This document shows positions 1,524 to 28,137 of a stretch of DNA of 35,931 nucleotides, one piece after another. The notes beneath the pieces were generated by a model. It ran no database searches and was not told the origin of the DNA. It was given only the letters and a program-made list of their open reading frames with translations. Every line of letters starts with the position of its first letter. The first letter of the stretch is position 1. This stretch comes from Vulcanimicrobiota bacterium (GTDB taxonomy: Bacteria > Vulcanimicrobiota > Vulcanimicrobiia > Vulcanimicrobiales > Vulcanimicrobiaceae), in NCBI GenBank assembly GCA_003140855.1, contig PLLF01000099.1:1-35931 (forward strand). Direction: 5' to 3'. Position numbers and translations under genes: made by a program.

Positions 1524-1817
1524 GTGTCGGGAACCGGGTCGTATGTCCTTGTCGGAGCAGTTGCTGCAGTCGGCGTTCTGCACACTATCGTGCCCGATCA
1601 CTGGTTACCGATAACAATCCTTGCACGCCAGCAAGGGTGGACGTGGCGCCAGGTGGCACGATCTGCGGCCATAGCTGGCAGCGGACACGCAATCTCGACA
1701 CTGCTCATTGCGATCCTGGTCTGGGTACTCGGCGCGGTGATCGCGGCAAGATTCGGAGGCGCGCTGGAGCTGATCCGCTTTCGTAGACGGTTGTTGATTG
1801 GACATTACGCCGCCTGA
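1524..1817 (+). pseudogene. N-terminal fragment of a nickel/cobalt (NicO/UreH-type) transporter
   Basis: From GTG 1524 the frame gives about 85 residues of a membrane protein. It contains HTIVPDHW, which matches the HX4DH signature of the NiCoT/RcnA/UreH transporter group (the first-helix His and Asp that handle Ni2+ or Co2+). GHAISTLLIAILVWVLGAVIA then forms a second hydrophobic segment. Full-length members have six to eight membrane segments and 200 or more residues; here the frame runs out after two, with an unrelated tail (residues about 80-97) that ends just before the HigB promoter. I read it as a truncated, non-functional remnant. A small intact two-helix protein is a less likely alternative. 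Confidence 0.55.
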
Positions 1818-1891
1818 GCCATGCGCCGCTCGAACTCTATCGGCGTTTGGCCTTGTTACCGGTGCTTCGCGCCCCCATCGACCGGCGGGCC

Positions 1892-1920
1892 TTGACACGT
1901 ATAACGGTATACATTATAGT
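1892..1920 (+). promoter_or_regulatory. higBA promoter with embedded operator
   Basis: TTGACA at 1892-1897 and TATAGT at 1915-1920 are separated by exactly 17 bases, a near-consensus sigma-70-type promoter. The spacer carries a perfect inverted repeat, GTATA-ACGG-TATAC, at 1899-1912, placed where HigA, alone or with HigB, would block RNA polymerase. The predicted transcription start, about seven bases after the -10, falls on the GTG at 1927, so the toxin message may be leaderless. Confidence 0.7.
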
Positions 1921-1926
1921 GGCGTT

Positions 1927-2217
1927 GTGAGGCGGTTCGCCGATAAGGGAACATCTGACATCTTCGAGGGCATCAACTCGAAGGACGCACGCAGAACGCT
2001 CCCCTCGACGCTGCACCACCGCGCCAGGATGATGCTTGTGGTCCTGACAAGCGCCACAACGATCAACGACCTAAGAATTCCAGCCTCTAATCGCTTAGAG
2101 AAACTCGCGGGCAACCGAAGGGGTCAGCGCAGCATTCGAATCAACAATCAATTTCGTATCTGCTTTACGTGGGGTGTCGAAGGAGTCAGCGAGATCGAAA
2201 TTGCCGACTATCATTAG
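1927..2217 (+). CDS. higB: HigB/RelE-family toxin (type II toxin-antitoxin)
   Basis: 96 residues from GTG 1927. HigB toxins are RelE-fold endoribonucleases that cut mRNA on the ribosome. The protein begins VRRFADKGTSDIFEG and ends RSIRINNQFRICFTWGVEG...EIEIADYH, the usual HigB C-terminal core. The basic/aromatic surface (R-I-N-N-Q-F-R-I-C-F) is intact, as is a central NDLRIPASNRLEKLAGNRRGQ segment. The frame is open upstream to 1798, but residues encoded before 1927 do not match the family and the promoter sits at 1892-1920, so I chose 1927. It precedes its antitoxin by 15 bases, the order typical for HigBA (toxin first). Confidence 0.85.
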   Translation: MRRFADKGTSDIFEGINSKDARRTLPSTLHHRARMMLVVLTSATTINDLRIPASNRLEKLAGNRRGQRSIRINNQFRICFTWGVEGVSEIEIADYH

Positions 2218-5262: not shown

Positions 5263-6453
5263 TCACTTACCCAGAGGCGTCGTCCACCATAAGAACCAGC
5301 GCCAGTCGGGTCCGCCGCTTGGTGCGCTCGAATTGCCTAACATCCCCGCTTCGATGTATCCGTGCAAGTACTGCACTCCGGGCACGTTGAAGGCTAAGTT
5401 TACGTTGGCGAAATTCGTTGTCGTTCCCAGGCCGTCGTTGGTTGTTTCGGTACGAAGCCCCAGCAATGCGTTGTCTCCAAAGAGCGGTTCGTAAAGCTCC
5501 GCGCTAAAAGCGCGGCTGCGTGCAGATGGAAACTGATTGCCGTCGGCGTCAAACCCCGGGTTCGAGTCGTTGCCGATTTGATAAATGGCCAACACTCCGG
5601 GAAATCCGTTAGTCGGATCGCGCTGCACGTAACCGGCCATCGAACTGTAATGGTCGGGGTCGCCGCTTGAAACAATGAAGCTGCCGGAGCTCCCGAATAT
5701 GCCGAATTCATAGGGGTGATCGGGCAGCGCTTGCACCAGTTTCCAGGCGAACGTTTTATCCGTTCCGGGAACCGTATCAAAATCCGCGGCGCCTGGAAGT
5801 CCGTTTCCGCTTCCGAGCCATGCAACTTCGGCATTCCAGTTGTCATGCACGTAGCCGAGTTTTGCGCCCCAGCGGTTGGCATCTGCTTGCCACGTGTGCT
5901 CACCGACCGTCACGCCGGCCGCTGCAAATCCCGAAACGTCGAACCACTGGCTATAGGGCGACGGGCCGGGCGATTCGATCTTGCCCACAAACAGATGGCC
6001 GTCGCGATGGAATAAATTGTTGTATGTCACCCAAGCGGTATCCAGCGAACCGCCGGTCTTATCGTTCTGAATCAGCCATTGTTGAACGTGATAGGTAAAG
6101 TCCGGCGCAAGATAGCCCGCGCCGTGAAGGGCGACGTTTCCGGCCGCGATAGTATGCGTAGGAGATCTGTCGCTCACGCCGCCCGTGTTGTCGCCGTTGA
6201 TTTGTTCGCCGAGCCAGAACGGCAAGTGTTCCTTCAGCACGTCGCGATCGAGCGACGCGTAGCCGGTGCGTTGCACGAAGCGCCCGTACGCGTTAAGGCC
6301 GGGAACCATCGTGTGGCAAGCGCTGCATTGCAAGCCGTAAGCTTTTGCGAAGATCGGCATCGCCTGCGCGCGTGTGCCGGCGCAGAATGAAAATGCCGCC
6401 GCGAGCACGGCAGCCGCGGTCAAGCCGCGGCTGAATTCCTTCCGTGCGATCAC
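5263..6453 (-). CDS. exported mono-heme cytochrome c with beta-barrel-like C-terminal domain
   Basis: 396 residues. The first 31 or so form a signal peptide (AAVLAAAFSFCAGTRAQA). It is followed by MPIFAKAYGLQCSACHTMVPGLNAYGRFVQRTGY, with one heme c site Cys43-x-x-Cys46-His47. The remaining 320 residues are rich in alternating aromatic/polar strands (DFTYHVQQWLIQN, WQADANRWGAKLGYVHDNWNAEVAWLG) and end in aromatic strands (WRWFLWWTTPLGK), like an outer-membrane barrel. This layout suggests an electron-carrying outer-membrane protein; that is inference from pattern, not from a characterised homologue. Its ATG overlaps the stop of the upstream CuA protein by four bases, so the two are made together. 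Confidence 0.75.
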   Translation of the reverse strand: MIARKEFSRGLTAAAVLAAAFSFCAGTRAQAMPIFAKAYGLQCSACHTMVPGLNAYGRFVQRTGYASLDRDVLKEHLPFWLGEQINGDNTGGVSDRSPTHTIAAGNVALHGAGYLAPDFTYHVQQWLIQNDKTGGSLDTAWVTYNNLFHRDGHLFVGKIESPGPSPYSQWFDVSGFAAAGVTVGEHTWQADANRWGAKLGYVHDNWNAEVAWLGSGNGLPGAADFDTVPGTDKTFAWKLVQALPDHPYEFGIFGSSGSFIVSSGDPDHYSSMAGYVQRDPTNGFPGVLAIYQIGNDSNPGFDADGNQFPSARSRAFSAELYEPLFGDNALLGLRTETTNDGLGTTTNFANVNLAFNVPGVQYLHGYIEAGMLGNSSAPSGGPDWRWFLWWTTPLGK

Positions 6454-6809
6454 GCCACGACCTTAATCGTCAGCGTCATGGTGCTGTGTCCTGCCCCGCA
6501 GAACACGGTGCAGTGGATGACGTACGTGCCGGCTTTCTTGGGTGTGAACGTAATGGTTGCGTACTTGCCCGGCAGTATCATGGTGTTCGCAATGCCGAGA
6601 TCCGGCGAAACGATTCCGTGCACGCCGCCCGACGACGTTAGTCGCAGCGTGGTTACTTCATTCACGTGAGCGGTAATCGTTCCGGGCGTGAATTTCCAGT
6701 TCGCAGCCACGATATCGATGCTGGGGTGCGCCGACGCGCGGTGCGGGGCCGATGCGAGTACGAGAGTTGAGGCGATGGCCAGAGTGGCCGCTAGAATAAT
6801 TCTTTTCAT
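6450..6809 (-). CDS. periplasmic free-standing CuA cupredoxin (COX2-like domain)
   Basis: 119 residues: signal peptide 1-27 (ending ASA), then a single cupredoxin domain. The CuA ligands are complete: His64 in SGGVHGI and the C-x3-C-x3-H-x2-M motif CTVFCGAGHSTM (Cys100, Cys104, His108, Met111). It lacks the transmembrane helices of oxidase subunit II and is much shorter than nitrous-oxide reductase, so it should be a soluble two-copper electron carrier in the periplasm. Its start has a TACTCT box six bases upstream, so it can have its own promoter. It overlaps the cytochrome/barrel gene, pointing to electron transfer between the two. Confidence 0.85.
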   Translation of the reverse strand: MKRIILAATLAIASTLVLASAPHRASAHPSIDIVAANWKFTPGTITAHVNEVTTLRLTSSGGVHGIVSPDLGIANTMILPGKYATITFTPKKAGTYVIHCTVFCGAGHSTMTLTIKVVA

Positions 6810-8112: not shown

Positions 8113-9165
8113 ATGATGCAGCCCGAGGTCATCCCTTTTTCGGATGCGCCGCGGATCGTCATTTGGGAAATGACCCGCGCATGCGCCCTGGCTTGCCGGC
8201 ATTGCCGTGCCGAAGCGATCCCCTTTCGCAATCCCGATGAATTAACCACGTCCGAGGCCTTCGCGCTGGTCGATTCTATCGCCGAATGCCGGCCGCTCTT
8301 TATCCTGACCGGCGGCGATCCGCTGATGCGCGGCGACGTCTTTAAAATCGTCGAATATGCCACCAACAAGGGTCTACGCGTGGCCGTTTCTCCAAGCGCC
8401 ACGGGCCGGCTTACGCCGGCGGCGCTGGCAAAACTATCTCGCGCGGGTTGCAAGAGCATCTCGCTGAGTCTCGATGGGCCCACTGCGGAAATGCATGATT
8501 CTTTCCGCGGCGTTCGCGGTTCGTTCCAGCGAACGCTCGATGCGGCTCGCTCCGCGCGCGAGATGGGTCTGTTAACGCAGATCAATACGACCGTTTCCCG
8601 TTTTAACAACGATCGGCTTTTCTCGATCGCGTCTTTAATCGAGCCGCTCGGCATCGCATCGTGGACGTTGTTTTTTCTCGTGCCGGTCGGTCGAGCCCAG
8701 CTCGAAGACGTGTTGAGCGCGCAAGAAACCGAAGAAGCGTTTCGGCGTCTTTACGAAATTGCGCAGACCGTCCCGTTCGCGGTGAAGACAACCGAGGCGC
8801 CGCATTACCGCCGGTTTCTCGCTCAACACGAGGGCACGCCGGCAGCGCAACTCCCAGCCGGAATAGGAGACGGAAAAGGGTTCATGTTCGTCTCGCACAC
8901 GGGTGACGTTTATCCGAGCGGCTTTCTGCCATATACCGCCGGGAATGTGCGAGAGATTAGCCCGCTCGCGCTGTATCGCGAGAATCCCGTCTTCCGCAAA
9001 CTACGCGAACCGTCGGAGTTCTCCGGTAAGTGCGGTCTCTGCGAGTTTGCGCAACTGTGCGGCGGTTCGCGCGCCCGCGCCTATGCCATGAACAAGAGCA
9101 TGTTCGCGTCCGACCCCACGTGTGCGTACACCCCGGAGGTTTTGCGGACCGCGGCTTATGCTTAA
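8113..9165 (+). CDS. radical SAM/SPASM protein (TIGR04053-like)
   Basis: 350 residues (a second ATG follows directly). The radical-SAM core has Cys24-x3-Cys28-x2-Cys31 (TRACALACRHCRAEA) for the 4Fe-4S cluster, then ILTGGDPLMR as the SAM-binding GGE-type motif and SLSLDGPTAEMHDSFRGVRGSF. WTLFFLVPVGRAQ and KTTEAPHYRRF are hallmarks of the TIGR04053 group, related to the heme enzymes AhbC, AhbD and NirJ. A C-terminal SPASM region, CGLCEFAQLCGGSRARAYA with ASDPTC, holds an auxiliary cluster. Its stop lies inside the start of the next radical SAM gene, so the two are translationally coupled. The exact substrate is unknown; a porphyrin-type or peptide target is possible. Confidence 0.85.
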   Translation: MMQPEVIPFSDAPRIVIWEMTRACALACRHCRAEAIPFRNPDELTTSEAFALVDSIAECRPLFILTGGDPLMRGDVFKIVEYATNKGLRVAVSPSATGRLTPAALAKLSRAGCKSISLSLDGPTAEMHDSFRGVRGSFQRTLDAARSAREMGLLTQINTTVSRFNNDRLFSIASLIEPLGIASWTLFFLVPVGRAQLEDVLSAQETEEAFRRLYEIAQTVPFAVKTTEAPHYRRFLAQHEGTPAAQLPAGIGDGKGFMFVSHTGDVYPSGFLPYTAGNVREISPLALYRENPVFRKLREPSEFSGKCGLCEFAQLCGGSRARAYAMNKSMFASDPTCAYTPEVLRTAAYA

Positions 9166-10330
9166 CGTTACAAAGTTGCTGTGTGGGCTCGATCAGCCGA
9201 TGGATGCATTGCGCTATGGCCACGGCGCCGGCGCGCCAAGAAGTGCTCGCGAACGCAAGCCCGTCGTGGTTTGGAACGTCTCGCGGACGTGCAATCTCCG
9301 TTGTTTGCATTGTTACAGCGACTCGTACGCGCGCAAATATTCGGGCGAGCTCACGTATACGCAGGGTATCGATTTGCTCAAAGATTTGGCCAAGTTCGGC
9401 GTACCGGCAGTGCTGCTTTCCGGCGGTGAGCCGCTAGCCCGGCGCGACACCCTGCGCTTGGCGGAATTTGGGCGGATGCTGGGCTTGAAATTTACGCTGT
9501 CGACAAACGGCACGCTAATCACCGAAACGCTCGCGGAGCGAATTCGCGAGATCGGTTTTAGCTATGTCGGCATCTCGATCGACGGCATCGGCGCGACGAA
9601 TGATGGGTTTCGCGGCGTTTCCGGTGCCTTCGATCGGGCTGTTCGGGGCATTCGCAACTGTAAGGAAGTGGGGCAGAAAGTCGGCCTGCGCCTAACGTTG
9701 ACGCCGCAAACCGTACAGGACCTAGACCGGATATTTGACTTTATCGAGGCCGAAGATATCGACCGCGCTTGCTTCTACCATCTCGTTCCCACCGGACGGG
9801 GCCGCGGTGCGATGGCGCTCGATACGGCTCAAACGCGTGCCGCACTGAACACGATCTTCAAACGCACGCGGGAGTTTGTTGCCGGCGGGACGCCGCGCGA
9901 AATTCTCACCGTCGACAATCACGCGGACGCCGCGTCTCTGTACCTCACGCTGCTCCACGATGATCCGGTCCAAGCCGCGCGCGCTTATGACGCGCTCGTT
10001 TGGAACGGCGGCGGCGCTAATTCATCGGGAACAGGCATCGCCGATATCGATACGCAGGGCAACGTGCATCCCGATCAGTTTTTTCAAGGCGTCACGCTTG
10101 GGAACGTGAAGAACCGGCGCTTCAGCGAGATTTGGATAGATGAGAGCAACGAGCTCCTGCGGGCACTTCGAAGCAGCAAATTGCGCATCCACGGGCGCTG
10201 CGCGCAATGCCGGTTCATGCCGATCTGCGGTGGAAACTTTCGCGCCCGCGCTTTCAACATGACGGGCGATCTTTGGGCGTCCGATCCGGGCTGTTACCTG
10301 GACGATGCTACGATCGGTGTGACGGCATGA
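9158..10330 (+). CDS. AhbC/NirJ-like radical SAM/SPASM enzyme (siroheme-derived tetrapyrrole modification)
   Basis: 390 residues from ATG 9158, overlapping the previous stop by eight bases. The opening MLNVTKLLCGLDQPMDALRYGHG is characteristic of AhbC (12,18-didecarboxysiroheme deacetylase) and NirJ (heme d1 synthesis). Cys45-x3-Cys49-x2-Cys52 (TCNLRCLHCYSDS) binds the radical-SAM cluster. LLSGGEPLAR and GISIDGIGATNDGFRGVSGAF follow. The SPASM end (GRCAQCRFMPICGGNFRARAF, SDPGC) is complete. AhbC leads to heme b by the siroheme route and NirJ to heme d1; no siroheme decarboxylase or cytochrome cd1 gene is in view to decide between them. The next gene overlaps it by four bases (ATGA). Confidence 0.85.
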   Translation: MLNVTKLLCGLDQPMDALRYGHGAGAPRSARERKPVVVWNVSRTCNLRCLHCYSDSYARKYSGELTYTQGIDLLKDLAKFGVPAVLLSGGEPLARRDTLRLAEFGRMLGLKFTLSTNGTLITETLAERIREIGFSYVGISIDGIGATNDGFRGVSGAFDRAVRGIRNCKEVGQKVGLRLTLTPQTVQDLDRIFDFIEAEDIDRACFYHLVPTGRGRGAMALDTAQTRAALNTIFKRTREFVAGGTPREILTVDNHADAASLYLTLLHDDPVQAARAYDALVWNGGGANSSGTGIADIDTQGNVHPDQFFQGVTLGNVKNRRFSEIWIDESNELLRALRSSKLRIHGRCAQCRFMPICGGNFRARAFNMTGDLWASDPGCYLDDATIGVTA

Positions 10331-10996: not shown

Positions 10997-11425
10997 TTAA
11001 ACTTGCCGCACGCGCACCCAGGCGATAGCGGCAAATAAGATGACTGCGGCGAGCTGCAGCAGCGCGCTCGCGACAAGCGTTGCCGAAAAGAACAGAGTTG
11101 GCCCTTTGTCGACCAACGGTTCGAAAATGACGCGCAGCGCGAGCCCCGCGTTGAGCATTGTGAAGATGACGCGCACCGTCATCGCCGGATATCTGCCACG
11201 ATTCTCCGGAAACTTCTCGCGATTCACGGGCAAAAACCACAGCGCAATACCCATGACAAGATTGACCAGCCAGCCGACGAAGCCCATATGCGCGTGGACG
11301 TTCGAAAAGTTGTAGTGCAGCGGCAGCCCGAACGCCTTTAGGATGAGCAGTATCGCGCCTAGGGCAAAAGTGGCACAGAGCCATAGCAGGCTCGCTTTAA
11401 CGAAGAGGCGGCTTTCAACCGGCAT
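10997..11425 (-). CDS. four-helix membrane protein, NnrS/heme-copper subunit I-like
   Basis: 142 residues from ATG 11425 (a TTG at 11437 would add four). Four hydrophobic segments lie at about 10-30, 43-64, 85-105 and 113-137. The second holds HAHMGFVGWLVNLVMGIALWFLP, a His-x-His in a helix resembling the heme-ligand helices of NnrS and cbb3-type subunit I. The protein is far shorter than either, so it could be a half-unit that pairs with the divergent 11440 gene product, which carries further helix histidines. NnrS proteins contribute to nitric-oxide tolerance. Assignment is by pattern only. Confidence 0.6.
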   Translation of the reverse strand: MPVESRLFVKASLLWLCATFALGAILLILKAFGLPLHYNFSNVHAHMGFVGWLVNLVMGIALWFLPVNREKFPENRGRYPAMTVRVIFTMLNAGLALRVIFEPLVDKGPTLFFSATLVASALLQLAAVILFAAIAWVRVRQV

Positions 11426-11442
11426 GGTTGCTTGCAACCATG
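11423..11442. promoter_or_regulatory. 20-bp palindrome containing two divergent start codons
   Basis: CATGGTTGC-TT-GCAACCATG has nine-base perfect arms and contains the ATG of the minus gene (11425-11423) and of the plus gene (11440-11442). Only 14 bases separate the two coding regions. It is a likely shared operator. Neither ATG has a Shine-Dalgarno or TANNNT box, so either start could lie elsewhere. Confidence 0.5.
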
Positions 11443-12687
11443 TTTAGCCGGCGACATTGGGTTCCACCGGGCGCGCTCATCTTTGCGCAGCTTTCGCAAG
11501 GCGCATCATGGCTTCTTCTTCTCTGGGCCGGAGTCACCGGATCGATTTCGTCGATCGGATTCCCGGCCGTTGCGTGGATTCACGCCGTTGCCTTGGGCTC
11601 GGGAACCACTGCGGCCGCCGGCGTGCTGCTGCATGTCATTCCGCGCTTCAGCGATGTGCGATGGCGATCGGAGAATCTGGCTCGCTATTCCCTCTTCTTT
11701 TTCTGCGCCGGCGTTGTACTTTTCGTGGGCGCTTTGCTTTCCCGCCCCAACCTTGCGGTTTTCGGCGCGGGCGTGATTCTGTTGGCGCTCCTTACGTACA
11801 TCACCGTCGCGATCGTGACGCTGGCCCAGGCGTTTCGCGGCGAGCGCACCGAACGCGCGATCGCGCGAGCGCTGCTCATTACGCTTCTGTTTCTCGTTGT
11901 CACGGCGCTGCTGGGTTTCGCGCTGACCGCGTGGATCTCGGGATATACTGCGGCAGCCTGGATTGCGACATTGCCCGCGGCGCACGGAAACCTCGGCATG
12001 CTCGGCTGGCTTTCGCTGTTGGTCTTCGGCGTTTCGGTTCGCACGGTGCGGCCGATCACCGACGCGCGATCGCGGTTTGCCGCTGCCCACATCATCGTCG
12101 GATCCTTCACGCTCATCGGCGTCTTGCTATTGGCCATTGGCCTGGCCGGCGTTTCCCCGCTGGTCTGGCCCGGCGCGCTTCTCTTTGGTTGCGCGGCGCT
12201 GGTCTACGCACTCGACCTGCTCGATATCCTGCGGCGCGCGATTGGTCCGTTCGGCGCGCCGCGTGCGTTCCTGCTCGCCGCCGCCCTCTGGTTGCTCTGC
12301 GCGCTGGGCCTGGGCGCGGGAGCGCTTAGCGGCCAGCCATGGCAGCTGGCGTACGGCTTCGTCCTTTTGGCCGGTTGGCTCGGGCAGATGATCAATGCGC
12401 ACGTCTACCACATCGGCGTGCGCGTCATGCTAACGGCTTACCGCGGCGAGGACGACGAGACGCGTCCCCAAACCGTGCTCGACGCCCGGTTATCGTGGAT
12501 ATCTTTCGCTGCGTTTCAGCTCGCGATCGCAAGTGTCACGTTTGGGCTGCTCGTCCAAAATGCTAACGCAGTTTCGCTCGGCGGTGCGCTTGGCGCTGCC
12601 GGTTGGCTGGCGATGATGGCCAATCTTTCGATTGCGCGAGCGCGAGCGCGCGCGCTGCAGCCGCAGCCGACTATTTCCTTACTTTAA
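11440..12687 (+). CDS. twelve-helix membrane protein, NnrS/heme-copper-like
   Basis: 415 residues from ATG 11440 (TTG 11428 is an alternative). About twelve hydrophobic segments fill the protein. Histidines sit in or near helices at WIHAVALG, GVLLHVIPRF, LPAAHGNLGMLGW and GQMINAHVYHIGVRVML, a spacing reminiscent of NnrS and of cbb3-like subunit I proteins, which bind heme and sometimes copper. The typical oxidase HH pair and GHPxxY motif are absent, so it is not an ordinary terminal oxidase. It is divergent from the small 10997 protein across a palindrome, and its 3' end overlaps the convergent cytochrome gene by nine bases. A role in NO handling or heme-Cu assembly is inferred. Confidence 0.6.
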   Translation: MFSRRHWVPPGALIFAQLSQGASWLLLLWAGVTGSISSIGFPAVAWIHAVALGSGTTAAAGVLLHVIPRFSDVRWRSENLARYSLFFFCAGVVLFVGALLSRPNLAVFGAGVILLALLTYITVAIVTLAQAFRGERTERAIARALLITLLFLVVTALLGFALTAWISGYTAAAWIATLPAAHGNLGMLGWLSLLVFGVSVRTVRPITDARSRFAAAHIIVGSFTLIGVLLLAIGLAGVSPLVWPGALLFGCAALVYALDLLDILRRAIGPFGAPRAFLLAAALWLLCALGLGAGALSGQPWQLAYGFVLLAGWLGQMINAHVYHIGVRVMLTAYRGEDDETRPQTVLDARLSWISFAAFQLAIASVTFGLLVQNANAVSLGGALGAAGWLAMMANLSIARARARALQPQPTISLL

Positions 12688-13395
12688 GGATTGGACGAAG
12701 GCGGCGACGTCCGCCACGTCCTTTGCGCTCAACGGATTCGGATAGAGCGCCGGCATGGGCGGCGCGGGTTTCTTTATCCACGCCTGCGTTTCGGCGAGAT
12801 TTTTGCGCGCCGCTTCATTCTTGAGCGGCGGACCCATACCGCCCTGACCGCTCGCACCGTGACACGCCGCGCAGTTTTGCGCGAAGAGTATCTTCCCGTG
12901 CGCGACATTACCAGCCGGCGCCGCTTGCTGTGCGGCAACTGCCGGCGCGCGAAGATGGGTCGCCGCCGGCGCAACGCCATAACCGAATGCCGCGACTAAC
13001 GCCATTGATTCGAGCAGCAGCGCCGAAGCGACGCCGACGCCGCGCACGTAACGCTGCCCCGCATATGCCGTGAGGATCGCAAGCGCCACAAAAGCGAGGT
13101 GGTCGAGCGTATGCAGCCACGGGCTTCGATCGACAACTGCATACAACGACGGCGACATCAGCAGCATCGCGAGCAGCGGGCAAAGCACCGCTACCCAAAG
13201 CCACGGCGGAGATTCGCGATCGTCAGTGCCCGCGTAGAGCGCGAGCCCGGCGATCGCGCCGAGCAACATCAGCACCGCGTGATCCAGGTGGTGCGGTTGC
13301 ACGGCGATGCCGCGTTCGACGGTCATCACCGGCATCGCTGAAAGAACGATTCCCGCGAGTACGCTTCCCGCGAACACGATTCGGCGAACGGTCAT
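12679..13395 (-). CDS. membrane-anchored mono-heme cytochrome c, heme-copper operon
   Basis: 238 residues from ATG 13395. Five hydrophobic segments occupy residues 5-140, with His pairs in loops (QPHHLDHA, WLHTLDHLAF). A flexible Ala/Pro linker then leads to a periplasmic cytochrome c domain: HGKILFAQNCAACHGASGQGGMGPPL with Cys175-x-x-Cys178-His179, a likely Met ligand in PPMPALYPNPLS, and the closing helix DVADVAAFVQSLK. Its ATG overlaps the stop of the upstream heme-copper subunit I by four bases, so it is probably the electron donor or fixed cytochrome subunit of that enzyme. An apparent longer frame back to 13737 is a shadow of subunit I. Confidence 0.85.
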   Translation of the reverse strand: MTVRRIVFAGSVLAGIVLSAMPVMTVERGIAVQPHHLDHAVLMLLGAIAGLALYAGTDDRESPPWLWVAVLCPLLAMLLMSPSLYAVVDRSPWLHTLDHLAFVALAILTAYAGQRYVRGVGVASALLLESMALVAAFGYGVAPAATHLRAPAVAAQQAAPAGNVAHGKILFAQNCAACHGASGQGGMGPPLKNEAARKNLAETQAWIKKPAPPMPALYPNPLSAKDVADVAAFVQSLK

Positions 13396-14837
13396 GCTGC
13401 CGTCTCGGCGCTGCGCGCGCGCGCCAGGCGTACGGCCTCGATCAAACACACCACTAAACCCAGGATCAGCAGGATCGCGCCCGCGGAAGCCCAGGCGGCG
13501 ATTGCCGGGCCGGGAGCGGGCTGCTCGGCATAGCGCCGCGGGACGGAAGCTGCGCCTGCCACATACCATCCCAGCAGCAGCACCGCGCCGCCGCCGAAAA
13601 TTCCCAACCCCGTGATCCAGCGCGTCGCGAGCGAACTCACCAGTCCTGTCCGCGCTTCCAGATCTGCGAAGATCCAGCCGAACACGAAGAGCGTGACGCC
13701 TTCGAGCAGATACGTATGAAAGTGCGCCGGCACCCACAGCGTGTTATGCAGCGAGACGTTGATCGGAACCGTCGCGTCGATCAGCGCTCCGACGCCGCCG
13801 ATAAGCCATCCTACGAGCCCCGCGTACATGAACATGGAACTCATGGTCCAGCGTAGCCGCGACCGATAGATCAGCATCGCGCCGCCGAAGATCGTCACTA
13901 CGGCTGGCGGGAAGGCGGCCAAGTACGACGCGACTTCCCCGATGTACTGCAGGCCGCGCGGCTGCACGAAGTCCATATATAAATGATGGAAGTACGCGGT
14001 CGCCACAAAAAGCAGCGTTCCCCACCAGGCAATCGCGAGAACCTGCGACGTGTGCCATTCCCGCTGCGCGTAGCGCGGAAGCGCGACGTAGACAAAAGCG
14101 ATCGCCATGTAGATCGTCAGGTTCGCAAACGTATGTCCGAATAGGTACGTGAGATTCTTGGCCCACAGCGGATCGATCGCCACCGTTGGATCGATCCAGT
14201 GGATGATGAGCGCAACGCCGACCAGCATGCCGCCCGCCACCGCGAAGAGTCCGTCGACGGCGGTGATGAGGGCGGCGAAGGCCGCGGGCGGCGGCTCCGG
14301 GCGTCCCGACGCAACAAAGGCGTCGTGATGGAAGACCAGATCCCAGCCCATCGCGCCCCGCATGCCGCCGTACTTCGTAAGAACGCATCCGAGAAGTTGC
14401 ATGCAGTAAATGGTCCAGCCCAGCATAACGAGCGCAACACCTATCAGGAATGTCCCGGTCGCCCAATTCGGCCACGTCGTTCCCACGAACGGCAACGGAA
14501 AAAGAAATGTCCACCCCGCTCCAAAGCGTCCCGGAAAGACGCTCAAAATCACGGCCACGACGCCGAACACGATCAGCGCGTAGGCCGACCACGCCAGTCC
14601 TTGGTCCATCGCGCGCTCGCGATCCATGATGAACCATAGCCCGCCCATTCCGCAGAGCGCGAGGGCGACAATCATGCCCGAACCGTGCAGCGTCATCAAT
14701 GCATAGAACGAGCCCGGATCGTAGGTCAGCCAGCGCGCCTGCTCCATGCGCATCGCCAAACCGACCAGCACCATCAGGCCGAAGACTGCGATCCCGGTCG
14801 TCAAGTACGCCCACATGATCCTGCGCGGCCCGCTCAT
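13392..14837 (-). CDS. heme-copper oxidoreductase subunit I lacking the active-site tyrosine (candidate NO reductase)
   Basis: 481 residues from ATG 14837, which overlaps the subunit II stop (ATGA). About twelve helices carry all six metal-ligand histidines: His51 (TLHGSG) and His374 for the low-spin heme, His372 (PAHFHTYLLEG) for the active-site heme, and His235, His284 and His285 (LFGHTFAN, YFHHLYM) for CuB. In oxygen reductases of the A and B types the helix reads GHPxxY and the tyrosine four residues after the His is cross-linked and essential; here that position is Asn239. Loss of this Tyr is a hallmark of NO-reducing members of the superfamily, including recently described CuA-containing NOR families. 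The gene lies with a CuA subunit II, a cytochrome c, acetate kinase and phosphoketolase. NO as substrate is inferred. Confidence 0.85.
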   Translation of the reverse strand: MSGPRRIMWAYLTTGIAVFGLMVLVGLAMRMEQARWLTYDPGSFYALMTLHGSGMIVALALCGMGGLWFIMDRERAMDQGLAWSAYALIVFGVVAVILSVFPGRFGAGWTFLFPLPFVGTTWPNWATGTFLIGVALVMLGWTIYCMQLLGCVLTKYGGMRGAMGWDLVFHHDAFVASGRPEPPPAAFAALITAVDGLFAVAGGMLVGVALIIHWIDPTVAIDPLWAKNLTYLFGHTFANLTIYMAIAFVYVALPRYAQREWHTSQVLAIAWWGTLLFVATAYFHHLYMDFVQPRGLQYIGEVASYLAAFPPAVVTIFGGAMLIYRSRLRWTMSSMFMYAGLVGWLIGGVGALIDATVPINVSLHNTLWVPAHFHTYLLEGVTLFVFGWIFADLEARTGLVSSLATRWITGLGIFGGGAVLLLGWYVAGAASVPRRYAEQPAPGPAIAAWASAGAILLILGLVVCLIEAVRLARARSAETAA

Positions 14838-15385
14838 CGTACTTCGAAAGCTCCTTGCATCCCAGCATGCGCGATGCCGCAATACTCAAGACAGCGCACC
14901 AGGTAATGGCCCTTCACGCCGAACCGCAACGGCAGATGGTTCACGTAATCGGGCATCGCCTGCACTTGCGCCACCAGCCGCCCCCGCGGATCGTAGATAC
15001 CGAAACCATGGTTGACGTCTTTAGAAGTAACATCGAAGATAACGTTCGTTCCCGCCGGCACGGCCGGCGGAAGCTCGAAGCTATATTGGCTCGCAATGAC
15101 CGTAAAATGTTTTCCGGCCAGCGTTTCCGGCTTTCCATAGGGAAACGACGGTAGAGAGATCGCAAGCGCCACGACGGCAGAAGCGCCTAACCCCCACAGC
15201 CATCCCTTTCGCAAACGGTAACCCGAGGAAGTAACCGCCGCTTGCGTCTCGGGGGGTTCTATGGTTGTTCTCGCGACAGCGGCCATGATGATGAGAATCG
15301 CGCCGGCGGCTACGAGAAATCCGATCAGCACGGGGCTTGCGCCGTTCACGAACTTAACCGCCACGTATGCCTGGCGATCACGCAT
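14834..15385 (-). CDS. heme-copper oxidoreductase subunit II with CuA centre
   Basis: 183 residues from ATG 15385, overlapping the acetate kinase end by 40 bases; GTG 15364 would shorten it by seven residues and reduce the overlap. Two membrane helices (about 16-38 and 60-80) precede a periplasmic cupredoxin domain. CuA ligands are complete: His126 (VNHGFGI), Cys165, Cys169, His173 and Met176 in CLEYCGIAHAGM. It accepts electrons from a cytochrome or cupredoxin and passes them to the subunit I encoded directly downstream. A CuA subunit next to a Tyr-less subunit I distinguishes this enzyme from cNOR and qNOR, which have no CuA. Confidence 0.92.
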   Translation of the reverse strand: MRDRQAYVAVKFVNGASPVLIGFLVAAGAILIIMAAVARTTIEPPETQAAVTSSGYRLRKGWLWGLGASAVVALAISLPSFPYGKPETLAGKHFTVIASQYSFELPPAVPAGTNVIFDVTSKDVNHGFGIYDPRGRLVAQVQAMPDYVNHLPLRFGVKGHYLVRCLEYCGIAHAGMQGAFEVR

Positions 15386-16350
15386 GTCTCGTTCGTCAGA
15401 ATAACGCGCGTCTCCATTCCTTCGAACATGTCGAGACGCGCTCCGATCATCCTGCGAATATCCTCCGAATTCTCACCGATTCCGCCGGTAAAAACCAATA
15501 GGTCGAGCCCACCCAGCGTCACGGCCATCGCGCCGATGAATTTTGCGGCGGTATAAACGAAGAGCTGAACGGCTAGCTCGGCCGCTCGATCGCCGCTGCG
15601 TCGCGCCAACAGTTCGCGCATATCCGCCGTGGTTCCCGAAACGCCCAGCAAACCGGACTGCTGCGTCAGCAAGTGGTCTAAACCCTCAATCGTAAACTCA
15701 CCCGAACGCAACAGGTACAGCATGACGCCGGGATCCAGATCGCCCGGCCGCGTTCCCATCATCAGCCCGCCCAGCGGACTGAATCCCATCGTCGTATCGA
15801 CCGGCAGGCCGTCGCGCACCGCTGCAAGGCTCGCGCCATTCCCCAGGTGCGCGATCACCACGCGTGGATATCGCGCAGAGTCCAGCGTCGATACGATGTA
15901 CTCATAGGATAGGCCGTGGTAACCGTATCGCCGCACTAACGGATCGATCGAGGCCGGCAGCGCGAAACGCTGCGCGATCTCCGGCATCCGGCGGTGAAAC
16001 GCAGTATCGAAACACAACACCTGCGGCAGCACCGGCACAAGGGCCGTAACTTCGTCCACGATGCGCAGCTGCGAGGGCAGATGCAGCGGATCGATCGGCA
16101 CGTATCCGCGCAATTCCGTCAGGACGCTGGGTTCTACGACAACCGGCGCCGCGTGCATCCCCCCAAAAACAATCCGGTGCCCGACGGCCCGCGCCGAAAT
16201 GCCCTTGGCCGCTAGCTTGGCAAAGATGTCCTTAACCGGCGCGTTTACATCGAGGGTCTCCGCGAGCAGCTCGCGCTCGCCGCCGTCGCCCGCTTCAAAG
16301 ACCGCATATTTTAAGGATGACGATCCCGCGTCAAAGCAGAGAACCAGCAC
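15346..16350 (-). CDS. ackA: acetate kinase, short form
   Basis: 334 residues against about 400 in typical enzymes. It makes ATP and acetate from acetyl phosphate. Family motifs are present: FDAGSSSLKY (phosphate loop), GHRIVFGG with the conserved Arg, FDTAFH (catalytic Asp), RYGYHGLSYEYI, HLGNGAS, DTTMGFSPLGGLMMGTRPGDLDPG, LLTQQSGLLGVSG and FTGGIGENS. Two changes stand out: the Asn before AGSSS is Asp7, and the loop H..P.NL reads HLPSQL. It starts three bases after phosphoketolase, so one transcript turns xylulose 5-phosphate or fructose 6-phosphate into acetyl phosphate and then ATP. It overlaps the CuA subunit gene downstream, tying fermentation-type ATP supply to the respiratory enzyme. 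Confidence 0.92.
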   Translation of the reverse strand: MLVLCFDAGSSSLKYAVFEAGDGGERELLAETLDVNAPVKDIFAKLAAKGISARAVGHRIVFGGMHAAPVVVEPSVLTELRGYVPIDPLHLPSQLRIVDEVTALVPVLPQVLCFDTAFHRRMPEIAQRFALPASIDPLVRRYGYHGLSYEYIVSTLDSARYPRVVIAHLGNGASLAAVRDGLPVDTTMGFSPLGGLMMGTRPGDLDPGVMLYLLRSGEFTIEGLDHLLTQQSGLLGVSGTTADMRELLARRSGDRAAELAVQLFVYTAAKFIGAMAVTLGGLDLLVFTGGIGENSEDIRRMIGARLDMFEGMETRVILTNETCVIARHTWRLSS

Positions 16351-16353
16351 GTC

Positions 16354-18717
16354 TTAGGCCTTCCAGCGCCAGTTGCGGATCTCGGGCAAGTCGTCGCCGA
16401 ATTGCTCGATATACACCTTGTGCTCCACCAGTTTGTCCCTGATGTACTGTTTGATGTGCGCACCTAACTCTTGCAGGTGCGGCACGCGATCGATCACGTC
16501 GCCCGCCAGGTGCAGCCGGTCCAGGTCGTTCTTCACGGCCATGTCGAACGGCGTCGTCGTCGTGCCCTCTTCTTTATATCCGCGTACGTGCAGATTGCCG
16601 TGATTCGTTCGCCGATAGGTCAGGCGGTGGATCAGCCAAGGATAGCCGTGGAATGCAAAGACTATCGGCTTGTCTGTTGTAAATATCGAATCGAAGTCTG
16701 CATCTGAAAGCCCGTGCGGATGTTCGGTCTGAGGTTGCAGCGTCATCAAGTCGACCACATTGACGACGCGAATCTTCAGTTGCGGCAGGCGCTCGCGTAA
16801 GAGCGCCACGGCGGCCAGCGTTTCGAGCGTGGGCACGTCGCCGGCACAAGCCATCACCACATCGGGTTCCGCGTCCTGATCGTTGCTCGCCCATTCCCAG
16901 ATGCCCAGCCCCACGCTGCAATGCTTGATCGCTGATTCCATGTCCAGCCACTGCCATTCGGGCTGCTTTCCCGCCACGATCACGTTTACGTAGTTCCGGC
17001 TTCGCAAGCAGTGGTCGGCAACCGAGAGCAAGGTGTTCGCATCCGGCGGCAGATACACGCGTACGACGTCGGCCTTCTTGTTGACCACGTGATCGATGAA
17101 GCCCGGATCCTGATGGCTGAATCCGTTTTGGTCTTGGCGCCAGACGTGCGATGTCAGCAAATAGTTCAGCGATGCGATCGGCCTCCGCCAGTCGATGCCG
17201 CGAATCGATTTCAGCCACTTCGCATGCTGGTTTAACATCGAATCGATGATGTGCGTGAAGGCCTCATAGCATGAGAAAAATCCATGCCGTCCGGTCAGCA
17301 GATAGCCCTCGAGCCAGCCTTGGCAGAGATGCTCACTCAGGATTTCCATCACGCGTCCGTCCGGCGAAACGTGATCGTCGGTGGGCAAGATCGTCGCCGT
17401 GGAGGTTCGATCCGTTACTTCGAACAGCGCGCCCAAACGATTCGATGCGGTTTCATCCGGGCCGACGACGCGGAAGTGACTTGGATTGAGCTTCATTACA
17501 TCTCGCAAGAACGCTCCGAGAATTAGCGTCGACTCGTTCTGCACTGCGCCCGGAGTCTCAACTCGAACCGCGTAATCTCGGAAGTCCGGCATCACGAGAT
17601 CTTGCAGCAACAAGCCGCCGTTGGCGTGCGGATTCGCCCCCATACGGCGGCTGCCGGTCGGCGCGAGCTCGGCAAGATCGCCGCGCACGCGGCCGGTTTC
17701 ATCGAAGAGCTCCTCAGGATGATAGCTACGCATCCACTCTTCTAGTACACCCCGGTGCTTCGCATTCGTGATGACATCGGTAATCGGAACTTGGTGCGCG
17801 CGGAACGTTCCTTCGATCTGCACGCCGTCGACAATCTTCGGCCCGGTCCAACCTTTAGGCGTCCGCAAGATAAGCATCGGCCACGTCGGACGTTCTTTGA
17901 ATCCCTGCGATCTTGCCGAGCTTTGAATCTCGCGAATGCTCTCGATTGCGTTGTCCAGCGCCGCGGCCATACGCTGATGCATGTCCGGCGGCTCGTCACC
18001 CGCGATTAGGATCGGACCGTATCCGTAACCTTTAAAGAGAGCGAACAGTTCATCGTCCGGTATGCGCGCGAGAACTGTCGGCCCCGCGATTTTATATCCG
18101 TTCAAATGGAGTATTGGTAGAACAGCGCCGTCATGCGCCGGATTCAAGAACTTGTTCGAATGCCAGCTCGCCGCCAGTGCGCCGGTCTCCGCTTCTCCGT
18201 CCCCGACCACGCAGCACGCCAGAAGATCGGGGTTGTCAAAAACTGCGCCGTAAGCGTGTGCGAGCGAATAGCCTAGCTCGCCGCCTTCATGAATCGAGCC
18301 CGGCGTTTCGGGCGAAGCATGGCTCGGAATACCGCCCGGGAACGAGAATTGCTTGAAAAGGCGCCGCATTCCGCGCTCGTCCTGCGTGACGTTGGGATAC
18401 AGCTCCGAATAGATTCCCTCGAGATACGTATTGGCAACGACGGCCGGCCCGCCGTGCCCCGGGCCGCAAACGAAGATCGCGTTGAGCTCGTACTTCTTTA
18501 TCGCGCGGTTCATGTGCGCGTAGATGAAATTCAGTCCCGGAGTCGTTCCCCAGTGGCCCAATAAACGCGGTTTGATGTGCTCCGGGCGTAACGGTTCGCG
18601 CAGCAGCGCATTGTCCAGCAAATAGATTTGCCCGACCGCTAGGTAATTTGCGGCTCTCCAATACGCGTCGATCCGGCCGAGTTCTTCTGGCGAAAGGACC
18701 GTCTTCAAGACGTGCAT
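16354..18717 (-). CDS. xfp: xylulose-5-phosphate/fructose-6-phosphate phosphoketolase
   Basis: 787 residues, the usual length. This thiamine-diphosphate enzyme splits xylulose 5-phosphate (or fructose 6-phosphate) with phosphate to give acetyl phosphate plus glyceraldehyde 3-phosphate (or erythrose 4-phosphate). Recognisable parts are [74 protein letters not shown] and the ThDP/Mg motif GDGEAETG. Downstream are [53 protein letters not shown] and FAFHGYPW. It is the first gene of the operon running through acetate kinase, CuA subunit II, subunit I and the cytochrome. A TACGCT box lies eight bases before its ATG. Confidence 0.96.
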
Positions 18718-25339: not shown

Positions 25340-26052
25340 CAGTCTTTACGCAGCTTATAACCGACGCCGTAAACGGTCACGATATACGCCGGATCTTCCG
25401 GGTTGGGTTCGATTTTGCGGCGCAAATTGTTGATGTGCCGGTCGAGGGTGCGCTCGAAGATGCTACCGTCGTCGTGCACGAGATCCAGGAGCTGGGCGCG
25501 TGTCAGCACTTGCCCTGCGTTGCTCGCCAGCACGCTCAAGATCCGAAACTCGGCGGGCGTTACGGGAACCGGCCTCCCTGCGACTCGCACTTCGTGAGCG
25601 CGCGCATCTATTTGCAAATCTTTGATCTGTATAATCTGCTCGGTGTCTTGCGCGCCGGCTTGCTGCTTATCCGCGCGCCGGAGTACGGCGCGCACCCGCG
25701 CGACCACTTCGCGGGGCGAGAACGGCTTCACCACGTAATCGTCCGCTCCCAGTTCCAATCCGACGACGCGATCCACTTCGTCGCTGCGCGCCGTCAGCAT
25801 GATGGTCGGAATCCGGCGGTCTTTGTTTCCGCGGCGCAATATGTCGAGGCCGCTGCCGTCGGGCAGCGTAATATCCAAAATCATGATGTCCGGCCGGTGT
25901 TTGTCGAGCTCGGCCAGCGCTGAAGCCACATCGAGACAGACGACGCTTTCGAACGATTCTCGCTGCATGTAAGCGCTCAGCACTTCGCCGATTTGCGGTT
26001 CGTCGTCGACGATCAGCACGCGCTTGCCCGCGAACGTCGAATCCACTACCAC
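25339..26052 (-). CDS. OmpR/PhoB-family response regulator
   Basis: 237 residues. The receiver (about 10-125) has Asp16-Asp17, phospho-acceptor Asp60 (IMILDITLPDG), Thr87 (MLTAR) and Lys109 (YVVKPF). After a Gln/Ala linker, the winged-helix effector (about 145-235) reads TPAEFRILSVLASNAGQVLTRAQLLDLVHDD...DRHINNLRRKIEPNPEDPAYIVTVYGVGYKL. The start lies 7 bases inside the ba3 oxidase subunit I gene. Partner kinase: only a DHp-like protein follows; the complete PAS kinase at 29342 lies on the other strand. It probably tunes the respiratory genes that share its transcript. Confidence 0.92.
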   Translation of the reverse strand: MVVDSTFAGKRVLIVDDEPQIGEVLSAYMQRESFESVVCLDVASALAELDKHRPDIMILDITLPDGSGLDILRRGNKDRRIPTIMLTARSDEVDRVVGLELGADDYVVKPFSPREVVARVRAVLRRADKQQAGAQDTEQIIQIKDLQIDARAHEVRVAGRPVPVTPAEFRILSVLASNAGQVLTRAQLLDLVHDDGSIFERTLDRHINNLRRKIEPNPEDPAYIVTVYGVGYKLRKD

Positions 26053-27668
26053 GTTCGCATACCGGGCGCCAAGAATCCAGGATTATGCAGCATTTCGAGC
26101 AGCGGGCCCGCATACGCCAGCACTGCTACGATGAGCGCCACCACTCCCCAGCGGAAGAGCGATTGCAGCATGCGCGGCGCGGGCTCTGTGCCCGCAACGG
26201 GCTGCGCAAATTCTACGGTCGTATCTTCGCCTTTTTCGTTCACGACCAGCGTCCCGATCGCGACCGCTGCAAACATGAGGATGCTCGTTAGCAACAGCAA
26301 GCCGCCCGCGGCCGCGACCAGCATGTAGCCCAGCCATTCGTTCGGGGCAGAGCCCAGATAGCTGACTTCCGCCGTGCGGCGCGGCGCGCCGAGTAGGCCC
26401 GCGATGTGCATCGACATCGACATCACTAACATTCCGATAAACCACGTACGCGTCTGCCACAACGCCCAGTCCGGTTTCCAGAGGGCGCGTCCGGTCAGCT
26501 TGGGGATCATCCAGTAGGAGATTCCGAGGAACGTCAACGCTACCGGGCCGCCGACCGTCACATGGAAATGGCCGACGATCCAAATCGTGTTGTGCACGAG
26601 GGTATCCATCGAGTACGACGCGTTCACTAGACCGCCGAAGCCGCCCAGAATAAAAAGCAGCATGCCGTATGCGGGCCCGCAGAATGCCGGATCATTCCAT
26701 GGCAGCGATGTGACAGTCTGCCAGAAGCCGCGCCGCCCTTGCAGGCGCGCGGCGATCTCGAAGCTCGCAAAGATCGCAAACGCCGTGATGAACGAGGGGA
26801 TCGCGACGCCGTAGGTCGTCACCGTGTGCAGCATCTTCCACGTTGAAGAAATGCCGGGCTCCATGAATTCGTGGTGAATCCCAACGGGGGTCGAAAGCAG
26901 CAGCAGCATGATGAACGTCAGCCGCGTCAAGCCGTCGCTGAAGAGCTTTCCGTTGTAGAATTTCGGCACGATATTGTACCAGCAAATGTAGGCTCCCATG
27001 ATCCAGAAATAGACCAGCGGATGGCCGAAATACCAGAACAGCATCCGCGTAAGCATCACGTTGATACCGGGCGTCCAGCCGAACGCCCATGGAATCAAGA
27101 AGTACATTTCGCCGACAACGCCCAGCGTAGCGATCCACCACATCAGAAACGTCGCGGCTGCCGTGAAAGCCGGCAGTGGTACCGGAACTCCCGGGTTATT
27201 CTTGCGGAACCACAGGACGTTTTCGAAAATTTCAGCGGCGACGATCCACGTCCCGATGATGAGAATCGTCGCGCCGATGTAAAACCATGGGCTGGCTTTG
27301 AGCGGCGCGTAAAACGTGTACAAAACAGTGGCGTTGCCGGCCAGGATCTCGAAAGCGGCCATAACGACGCCCAGCAGCATTACCCACCATCCGAGCCAGC
27401 CCAAAATCATTTTACGCGGGCGCGGTATCGAGCGATACGTTACAAAAAGCGAGAGGCCGCAGATAAAGAACGTGGTGAACACGAGCGCCATCAGCACTCC
27501 GTGCATAGTTAATATGCGATAGTAATCGAACCAGGCGGGCGCGTTAAACGCCGATGCCCGCGACATGCCTTGCAGTGCGCCGAAAACTGCGCCCAGCACG
27601 ATCGCGGCCGTCGCGGTATACACGTGCGCGATAACGACGCGATTCTCTGCGCGCACCGCTTCGGTCAT
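26046..27668 (-). CDS. cbaA: ba3-type (B-family) cytochrome c oxidase subunit I
   Basis: 540 residues with at least 12 membrane helices. Oxygen-reductase ligands are all present: His56 (TMHG) and His369 for the low-spin heme, His367 (GHFHVTVGG) for the active-site heme, His216, His265 and His266 for CuB, and the catalytic Tyr220 in YFGHPLVYFW, whose absence marks the other subunit I at 13392. Long insertions and PWFYIGATILIIGTW are typical of the B family (Thermus ba3). It reduces O2 to water with proton pumping. Subunit II lies one base upstream and subunit IIa before that; the regulator overlaps its 3' end. Confidence 0.93.
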   Translation of the reverse strand: MTEAVRAENRVVIAHVYTATAAIVLGAVFGALQGMSRASAFNAPAWFDYYRILTMHGVLMALVFTTFFICGLSLFVTYRSIPRPRKMILGWLGWWVMLLGVVMAAFEILAGNATVLYTFYAPLKASPWFYIGATILIIGTWIVAAEIFENVLWFRKNNPGVPVPLPAFTAAATFLMWWIATLGVVGEMYFLIPWAFGWTPGINVMLTRMLFWYFGHPLVYFWIMGAYICWYNIVPKFYNGKLFSDGLTRLTFIMLLLLSTPVGIHHEFMEPGISSTWKMLHTVTTYGVAIPSFITAFAIFASFEIAARLQGRRGFWQTVTSLPWNDPAFCGPAYGMLLFILGGFGGLVNASYSMDTLVHNTIWIVGHFHVTVGGPVALTFLGISYWMIPKLTGRALWKPDWALWQTRTWFIGMLVMSMSMHIAGLLGAPRRTAEVSYLGSAPNEWLGYMLVAAAGGLLLLTSILMFAAVAIGTLVVNEKGEDTTVEFAQPVAGTEPAPRMLQSLFRWGVVALIVAVLAYAGPLLEMLHNPGFLAPGMRTW

Positions 27669-27669
27669 C

Positions 27670-28137
27670 CTAGCGTACCTCGATCTTCGCGAACATGTTT
27701 TGGTGACCGATGCCGCAGTACTCGTGGCATATGAGCAAGTACGTCCCCTTGGTGCGGAAGACGTGCGAGTCGCTGTTCACCCAGCCGGGGATTGCCATCA
27801 TATTCACATCGGTTTTCGCGATGAAAAACCCGTGCACGACGTCGGGGCTGGTCACGTAAAACGTCACCTTCTTCCCGGCGGGAATCGTAATCGTCGCGGG
27901 GTTGAACGAAAACACTTGCGCGACGTAGTACGCTTCGTAGCTTCCGTCAGGCAAACGTCGTACGCCGGGGTGGTCGAACGGTGGCGTTTTAGAAACCTTG
28001 GTGGGATCGATGGCCTGCAGTCCGCTCGGCGGGTTCATGTTGTCAGCGAATGCGGCGAAAGCGATCGTTGCCAAGAATACGATCAGCATGCCCATTCCGA
28101 ACGTTAGCCACCAGCGTTCGTACTTATGAATGTGCAC
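27670..28137 (-). CDS. cbaB: ba3-type cytochrome c oxidase subunit II (CuA)
   Basis: 155 residues: one membrane helix (about 9-30) and a periplasmic cupredoxin with complete CuA ligands: His102 (VVHGFFI), Cys137, Cys141, His145 and Met148 in CHEYCGIGHQNM. One helix only, in place of two, is the B-family (ba3) form. It passes electrons to the subunit I encoded immediately downstream. The upstream small subunit IIa gene ends three bases before it. Confidence 0.93.
   Translation of the reverse strand: MHIHKYERWWLTFGMGMLIVFLATIAFAAFADNMNPPSGLQAIDPTKVSKTPPFDHPGVRRLPDGSYEAYYVAQVFSFNPATITIPAGKKVTFYVTSPDVVHGFFIAKTDVNMMAIPGWVNSDSHVFRTKGTYLLICHEYCGIGHQNMFAKIEVR

What the first reader, a model, noticed from the sequence alone, without database searches (positions are those of the whole stretch)
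13392..14837. Heme-copper subunit I with Asn in place of the catalytic Tyr: candidate CuA-type NO reductase
All six heme/CuB histidines are present (His51, 235, 284, 285, 372, 374), but the GHPxxY helix reads GHTFAN, with Asn239 at the tyrosine position. The second subunit I in the window (26046) keeps GHPLVY, a direct internal control. Loss of this Tyr is known from NO-reducing members of the superfamily. Here the enzyme has a CuA subunit II and a cytochrome c, unlike cNOR or qNOR, and sits with phosphoketolase and acetate kinase. It may belong to, or lie beside, the recently described CuA-containing NOR families (eNOR, sNOR, gNOR, nNOR).
Basis: partly seen in the sequence, partly recalled or inferred. 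Interest (0 to 1): 0.8.

Follow-up and report, generated by a model that had tools for sequence, protein, structure and literature searches.

The report
sNOR-family nitric oxide reductase, Eremiobacterota
The gene encodes the catalytic part of a copper-A-fed nitric oxide reductase of the already named sNOR family, in an uncultured soil bacterium (Candidatus Eremiobacterota); the Asn is the known mark of that family, and a conserved extra membrane subunit next to it looks little studied.

Summary
In detail: a heme-copper subunit I on the minus strand (14837..13392) has all six heme/CuB histidines and Asn239 where O2 reductases carry the cross-linked Tyr. Asn239 is invariant in 55 aligned relatives, and every O2-reducing B-family control checked has Tyr. 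Asn at this position is a published signature of sNOR. Two trees put the protein in one Asn clade (100/100 in the cleaner tree) with the Ruegeria (Silicibacter) pomeroyi homolog, apart from the Tyr B-family oxidases and the Gln eNOR-like proteins. Its nearest non-Eremiobacterota kin are Methylomirabilis proteins, a genus in which an sNOR is reported. A CuA subunit II with complete ligands is next to it (79 of 79 loci). NO-response genes (DUF2249, ScdA_N/hemerythrin, Crp/Fnr) lie near sNOR in 24 of 80 loci, about 40 times the expected number. The phosphoketolase/acetate kinase link is seen only within the genus. So it is a new member of a known, still biochemically unproven, NOR family. One less familiar element: a third operon gene, a 4-TM domain with conserved histidines plus cytochrome c, found at 61 of 80 related loci and fused to subunit I in Actinomycetota and one Planctomycete.

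The parts
13392..14837 (-). sNOR-type subunit I (NorY-like), 481 aa, about 12 TM helices; Asn239 codon at 14123-14121
14834..15385 (-). CuA subunit II (NorS-like), 183 aa, two N-terminal hydrophobic stretches, CuA motif ..H...CLEYCGIAHAGM; stop overlaps the subunit I start (ATGA)
12679..13395 (-). third operon gene, 238 aa: N-terminal 4-5 TM domain (HHLDHA ... MSPSLY ... HTLDH ... GYG) plus C-terminal monoheme cytochrome c (CAACH); start overlaps the subunit I stop (ATGA)
15346..16350 (-). acetate kinase family protein, upstream; linkage not conserved beyond the genus
16354..18717 (-). phosphoketolase, upstream; linkage not conserved beyond the genus
26046..27668 (-). B-family (ba3-like) O2 reductase subunit I with GHPLVY; internal control
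27670..28137 (-). subunit II (CuA, one hydrophobic stretch) of the ba3-like control

Best explanation
The cluster 15385..12679 encodes an sNOR-family (NorSY-type) nitric oxide reductase. Electrons from a soluble or tethered cytochrome c, probably the c domain of the third gene, reach CuA in subunit II, pass to a six-coordinate heme in subunit I, and then to a heme/CuB centre that lacks the redox-active Tyr. Two NO are reduced there to N2O and water. With no NirK, NirS or NosZ found above cut-off in the genome, the likely role is NO detoxification or opportunistic NO respiration rather than full denitrification. Shown here: residues, family placement, CuA ligands, operon layout, NO-response gene neighbourhoods across the family. 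Inferred: the chemistry, the electron route, and the role of the third gene.
For: Asn239 is invariant in the clade, with Tyr in B-family O2 reductases and Gln in eNOR-like proteins. Published table: sNOR = Asn, eNOR = Gln, gNOR = Asp, oxidases = Tyr (PMC8756737). The tree puts it with Ruegeria pomeroyi DSS-3 SPO_RS20755 ('Silicibacter' is a listed sNOR genus), 100/100, and a Methylomirabilis oxygeniifera protein is its near relative; an sNOR is reported in Ca. M. oxyfera (PMC6094997). Complete CuA set in 79 of 79 loci. Subunit II with two N-terminal TM stretches and a short subunit I match the 'type II qCuANOR' description in PMC3475470. DUF2249 / ScdA_N-hemerythrin / DUF2249-Crp genes in 24 of 80 sNOR loci: 29 copies against about 0.7 expected. 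No Tyr at the cbb3 position. High-confidence model (pLDDT 88); best PDB match Thermus ba3, TM 0.80 by query length.
Against: No sNOR has been purified in the literature I could read, and PMC6967387 argues that N. europaea sNOR may be a high-affinity O2 reductase. Invariant Tyr243, one turn past Asn239 on helix VI, could in principle substitute; its distance to CuB was not measured, since the tool gave no coordinates. The window's own locus has no RIC, DUF2249 or FNR gene; the family-level link is carried by relatives. The Murali et al. 2024 reference set was not held, and no bNOR, gNOR or nNOR sequence was in the tree.
Confidence: 0.78

Rival explanations
1. It is an sNOR-family protein, but the family works mainly as a high-affinity O2 reductase under low oxygen, with NO reduction as a side reaction.
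For: PMC6967387 proposes this for N. europaea sNOR because it is induced under O2 limitation. All six His and CuA are kept. A K-path-like Tyr (Y250, at the place of ba3 Y248 by my alignment) is invariant.
Against: The catalytic Tyr is absent throughout the clade. The genome already has four Tyr-bearing oxidases. NO-response genes cluster around the family.
Confidence: 0.15
2. It is a member of bNOR (CuANOR/qCuANOR type I), the other Asn-bearing family.
For: bNOR also has Asn and a CuA subunit (PMC8756737; PMC3475470).
Against: bNOR subunit I is about 560 aa and ba3-like, with subunit II of about 153 aa and one TM helix (PMC3475470). Here subunit I is 481 aa and subunit II has two N-terminal TM stretches. 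The protein groups with R. pomeroyi sNOR, far from ba3-like proteins.
Confidence: 0.02
3. The protein has another redox role, such as NO dismutation or sensing, rather than NO respiration or detoxification.
For: The genome shows no NO-producing nitrite reductase above cut-off, and no sNOR has been purified in the papers I could read.
Against: The known putative dismutases (NOD) are qNOR-derived and have one coordinating His replaced by Asn (PMC3413370). Here all six His and CuA are intact.
Confidence: 0.05

Closest known systems
sNOR (NorSY-SenC) of Ruegeria/Silicibacter pomeroyi, Nitrosomonas and Methylomirabilis
   Same: Asn at the Tyr position, CuA subunit II upstream of subunit I, short subunit I, same clade as R. 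pomeroyi in the tree
   Different: 37% identity to R. pomeroyi; no SCO/SenC gene adjacent; a third gene with a 4-TM domain and cytochrome c takes the downstream position
eNOR
   Same: CuA-containing, B-family-related NOR without the Tyr
   Different: Gln instead of Asn; separate branch with ba3-like proteins
bNOR / qCuANOR type I (Bacillus azotoformans)
   Same: Asn at the Tyr position and CuA (PMC3475470)
   Different: longer ba3-like subunit I and one-TM subunit II; not sequence-tested here
B-family ba3 O2 reductase (Thermus; window 26046)
   Same: fold (TM 0.80 by query length), six His, CuA
   Different: Tyr versus Asn; about 22% identity to Thermus ba3; separate clade

Membership tests
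sNOR | Asn at the cross-linked Tyr position of helix VI | tested here: met
   definition from PMC8756737
sNOR | Six heme/CuB histidines kept | tested here: met
sNOR | CuA cupredoxin subunit II adjacent, with complete ligands | tested here: met
sNOR | Monophyly with a founding sNOR (R. pomeroyi) | tested here: met
   37 rows, 100/100; also (96/99, with a long cbb3 row present)
sNOR | norSY-senC-orf1 gene order (as in AOB, PMC4940428) | tested here: not met
   norSY order kept but no SCO/SenC next to it; SCO is adjacent in R. pomeroyi and in Bacteroidota relatives. A neighbourhood trait, not taken as defining the enzyme family
sNOR | NO reductase activity | not testable with these tools
   needs enzyme assay
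eNOR | Gln at the Tyr position | tested here: not met
bNOR (qCuANOR type I) | ba3-like subunit I of about 560 aa with one-TM subunit II | tested here: not met
   481 aa and two hydrophobic stretches; description from PMC3475470
gNOR | Asp at the active-site position | tested here: not met
   Asn239; definition from PMC8756737
nNOR | Position in the Murali et al. reference tree | not testable with these tools
   paper not held
B-family O2 reductase | Tyr four residues after the CuB His of helix VI | tested here: not met
C-family (cbb3) | Tyr six residues before HH in helix VII | tested here: not met
   Val278; own cbb3 (C70) has Tyr there

The most novel reading that the evidence does not exclude
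The wide soil and subsurface branch of sNOR (Eremiobacterota, Methylomirabilota, Planctomycetota, Verrucomicrobiota, Bacillota, Actinomycetota) is a three-subunit enzyme. The extra subunit is a 4-TM domain with conserved HHLxHA and HxxxxH motifs, in some lineages joined to a cytochrome c, so that the enzyme carries its own electron donor and perhaps an extra metal or heme site.
Probability: 0.4. Interest if true: 0.5.

Novelty: new member of a known kind. Interest (0 to 1): 0.37.

Why it matters
N2O-forming NORs of the sNOR family are labelled cytochrome c oxidase by standard models; here the NCBIfam and Pfam hits were oxidase or COX1 models only (the same is noted for KEGG in PMC11388526). 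Showing sNOR across permafrost and soil Eremiobacterota and several other phyla, often with NO-response genes, adds organisms to the list of possible N2O sources or NO sinks. The conserved third gene and its natural fusions give a direct handle on what the enzyme complex contains.

Tried and rejected
Reading the + strand at the stated coordinates gives stops. The phosphoketolase/acetate kinase neighbourhood was dropped as a functional clue because it is conserved only in the same genus. A cbb3-like relocated Tyr was looked for and not found. NirK, NirS and NosZ searches of the genome gave only weak sub-cut-off hits. The third gene was tested as a CtaG-type assembly factor: Pfam E 0.7-1.7 and hhalign probability 17%, so unresolved. 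The fused Actinomycetota protein was modelled, but its C-terminal domain came out at low confidence (pLDDT roughly 50-69), so docking cannot be read from it. An alignment that mixed short third-gene rows with fused proteins misaligned and was discarded. A search centred on a plasmid record was not possible.

Full report
What is there. The gene lies on the minus strand, 14837..13392 (the + strand at these coordinates has stops). The 481-aa product is a COX1-family protein (PF00115, E 3e-49) whose best solved relatives are Thermus ba3 oxidases. Its six metal-ligand histidines are H51, H235, H284, H285, H372 and H374, and the helix VI motif is GHTFAN, with Asn239 where O2 reductases have Tyr. Subunit II and the third gene overlap it by ATGA at both ends, so three proteins are probably made as one translationally coupled set: CuA subunit II (15385..14834), subunit I, and a membrane/cytochrome c protein (13395..12679).

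More than chance. In 14 orthologs from related genomes the Asn is invariant, and it is Asn in every aligned relative of the 80-locus set. In the 55-row alignment A2, invariant columns include all six His, K227, N228, N239, Y243, Y250, D289 and Q292. Controls behave as expected: the window's second subunit I and B-family oxidases from Burkholderia, Deinococcus, Haloarcula and Geobacillus have Tyr, while proteins from Thermus plasmids, Defluviimonas and a second Thermomicrobium locus have Gln, the eNOR mark. The genome has five heme-copper enzymes: two A-family, one B-family, one cbb3-type, and this one.

Where it belongs. Record titles show the relatives are Candidatus Eremiobacterota (WPS-2) and other soil or subsurface bacteria. 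The Hemp and Gennis table reproduced in PMC8756737 gives the active-site residue as Tyr for oxidases, Asn for sNOR and CuANor, Gln for eNOR and Asp for gNOR. The Ruegeria pomeroyi DSS-3 megaplasmid homolog (SPO_RS20755, GHVFIN, 37% identity) comes from the genus the table lists as 'Silicibacter' (that R. pomeroyi was formerly Silicibacter is my own knowledge). In a 67-row careful tree the Asn sequences form one group (96/99). Without the long cbb3 row, 37 Asn sequences form one clade at 100/100 and the Tyr B-family plus Gln eNOR-like proteins form another at 100/99. A Methylomirabilis oxygeniifera protein (64% identity) lies close to the window protein; an sNOR is reported in Ca. M. oxyfera (PMC6094997), though I could not match that locus tag directly. 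bNOR was ruled out on published features rather than by tree. nNOR could not be tested because the defining paper is not held.

How it most likely works. CuA ligands are complete in all 79 subunit II relatives. Electrons would enter at CuA and pass through the low-spin heme to the heme/CuB centre. Without the Tyr that oxidases cross-link to a CuB histidine (PMC3475470), which in established superfamily knowledge supplies an electron and a proton for O-O cleavage, NO reduction is the expected chemistry. There is no cbb3-like replacement Tyr: position 278 is Val here and never Tyr in relatives. Two caveats: Y243, eight residues after H235, is invariant and specific to this clade among the sequences compared; and residues at the place of the ba3 K-path (Y250; E or Q301 and S304 in most relatives) are largely kept by my alignment, so a proton path is plausible. 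These are inferences.

Genomic support for a NO role. Around sNOR in 80 related loci, one recurrent neighbour group is DUF2249 proteins, DUF2249-Crp/Fnr regulators and ScdA_N-hemerythrin (iron-sulfur repair, NO-response) proteins: 24 loci and 29 copies in 1.07 Mb, against about 0.7 expected from the density in 41 related genomes. They occur in Eremiobacterota, Planctomycetota, Acidobacteriota, Verrucomicrobiota, Bacillota and Bacteroidota. Caveats: the rate comes from DUF2249 in Eremiobacterota relatives only, and some loci are near-identical, so the excess is approximate. The window's own flanks lack these genes; its 97%-identical ortholog (L026) has a DUF2249 fragment about 5 kb away. The genome shows no NirK, NirS or NosZ above cut-off, so detoxification or use of external NO is more likely than a complete denitrification chain. 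Among seven genomes of the genus only three carry it, which suggests gain and loss.

The third gene. A 4-TM domain with HHLxHA, MxPxxY, HxxxxH and GFG-like motifs is found at 61 of 80 related loci, usually directly after subunit I. It is part of the same polypeptide as subunit I in Solirubrobacterales and other Actinomycetota and in one Planctomycete. In 28 proteins, the window's included, a CxxCH cytochrome c follows in the same ORF. Fusion plus conserved adjacency argues that it is a real subunit or a dedicated assembly factor. A link to CtaG is suggested but not significant, and the model of a fused protein is not confident there. I did not find this described in the papers I could search, but most subscription papers are missing.

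Structure. The subunit I model is good (pLDDT 88, pTM 0.90) and matches heme-copper oxidases, Thermus ba3 best by E-value (TM 0.80 by query length, 22% identity).

Verdict. Observation confirmed. It is less novel than scored at first, because the Asn is the published mark of that family. NO reduction itself remains untested, and one group argues for O2 reduction in Nitrosomonas (PMC6967387).

Noticed in passing
window 12679-13395 (-): Conserved 4-TM domain with HHLxHA and HxxxxH motifs, fused here to a monoheme cytochrome c, next to sNOR subunit I in 61 of 80 related loci; no significant Pfam family for the 4-TM part.
   Followed up: partly
window 11428-12687 (+) and 10997-11437 (-): Two uncharacterised multi-TM proteins with His-rich helices, divergently arranged, no Pfam or NCBIfam hit, also next to sNOR in L026, L033 and L027 and present in L048.
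   Followed up: partly
window 8113-9165 and 9122-10330 (+): Overlapping pair of radical SAM proteins resembling heme b synthase / TIGR04053 and NirJ1/AhbC (heme d1-like); only the first passes a curated cut-off.
   Followed up: no
L057-L073 (Planctomycetota, Verrucomicrobiota, Acidobacteriota): Subclade of sNOR where the Gly before the CuB His of helix VI is replaced (AH or MH) and Asn stands three residues before HH in helix VII (TNYFHH).
   Followed up: partly
L122, L123, L124, L127: Gln-type eNOR-like subunit I genes on plasmids of Thermomicrobium roseum, Thermus thermophilus and Defluviimonas, annotated as cbb3-type oxidase; a DUF542 gene is next door in Thermus.
   Followed up: partly
L108:3899-5370 (Parasedimentitalea marina plasmid): An sNOR subunit I homolog is split over two reading frames and not annotated, so probably a broken copy.
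   Followed up: no
window 6450-6809 (-): Small cupredoxin with COX2-like similarity, standing alone without a subunit I next to it.
   Followed up: no
window 1798-2217 (+): HigB-like toxin of a type II toxin-antitoxin system.
   Followed up: no
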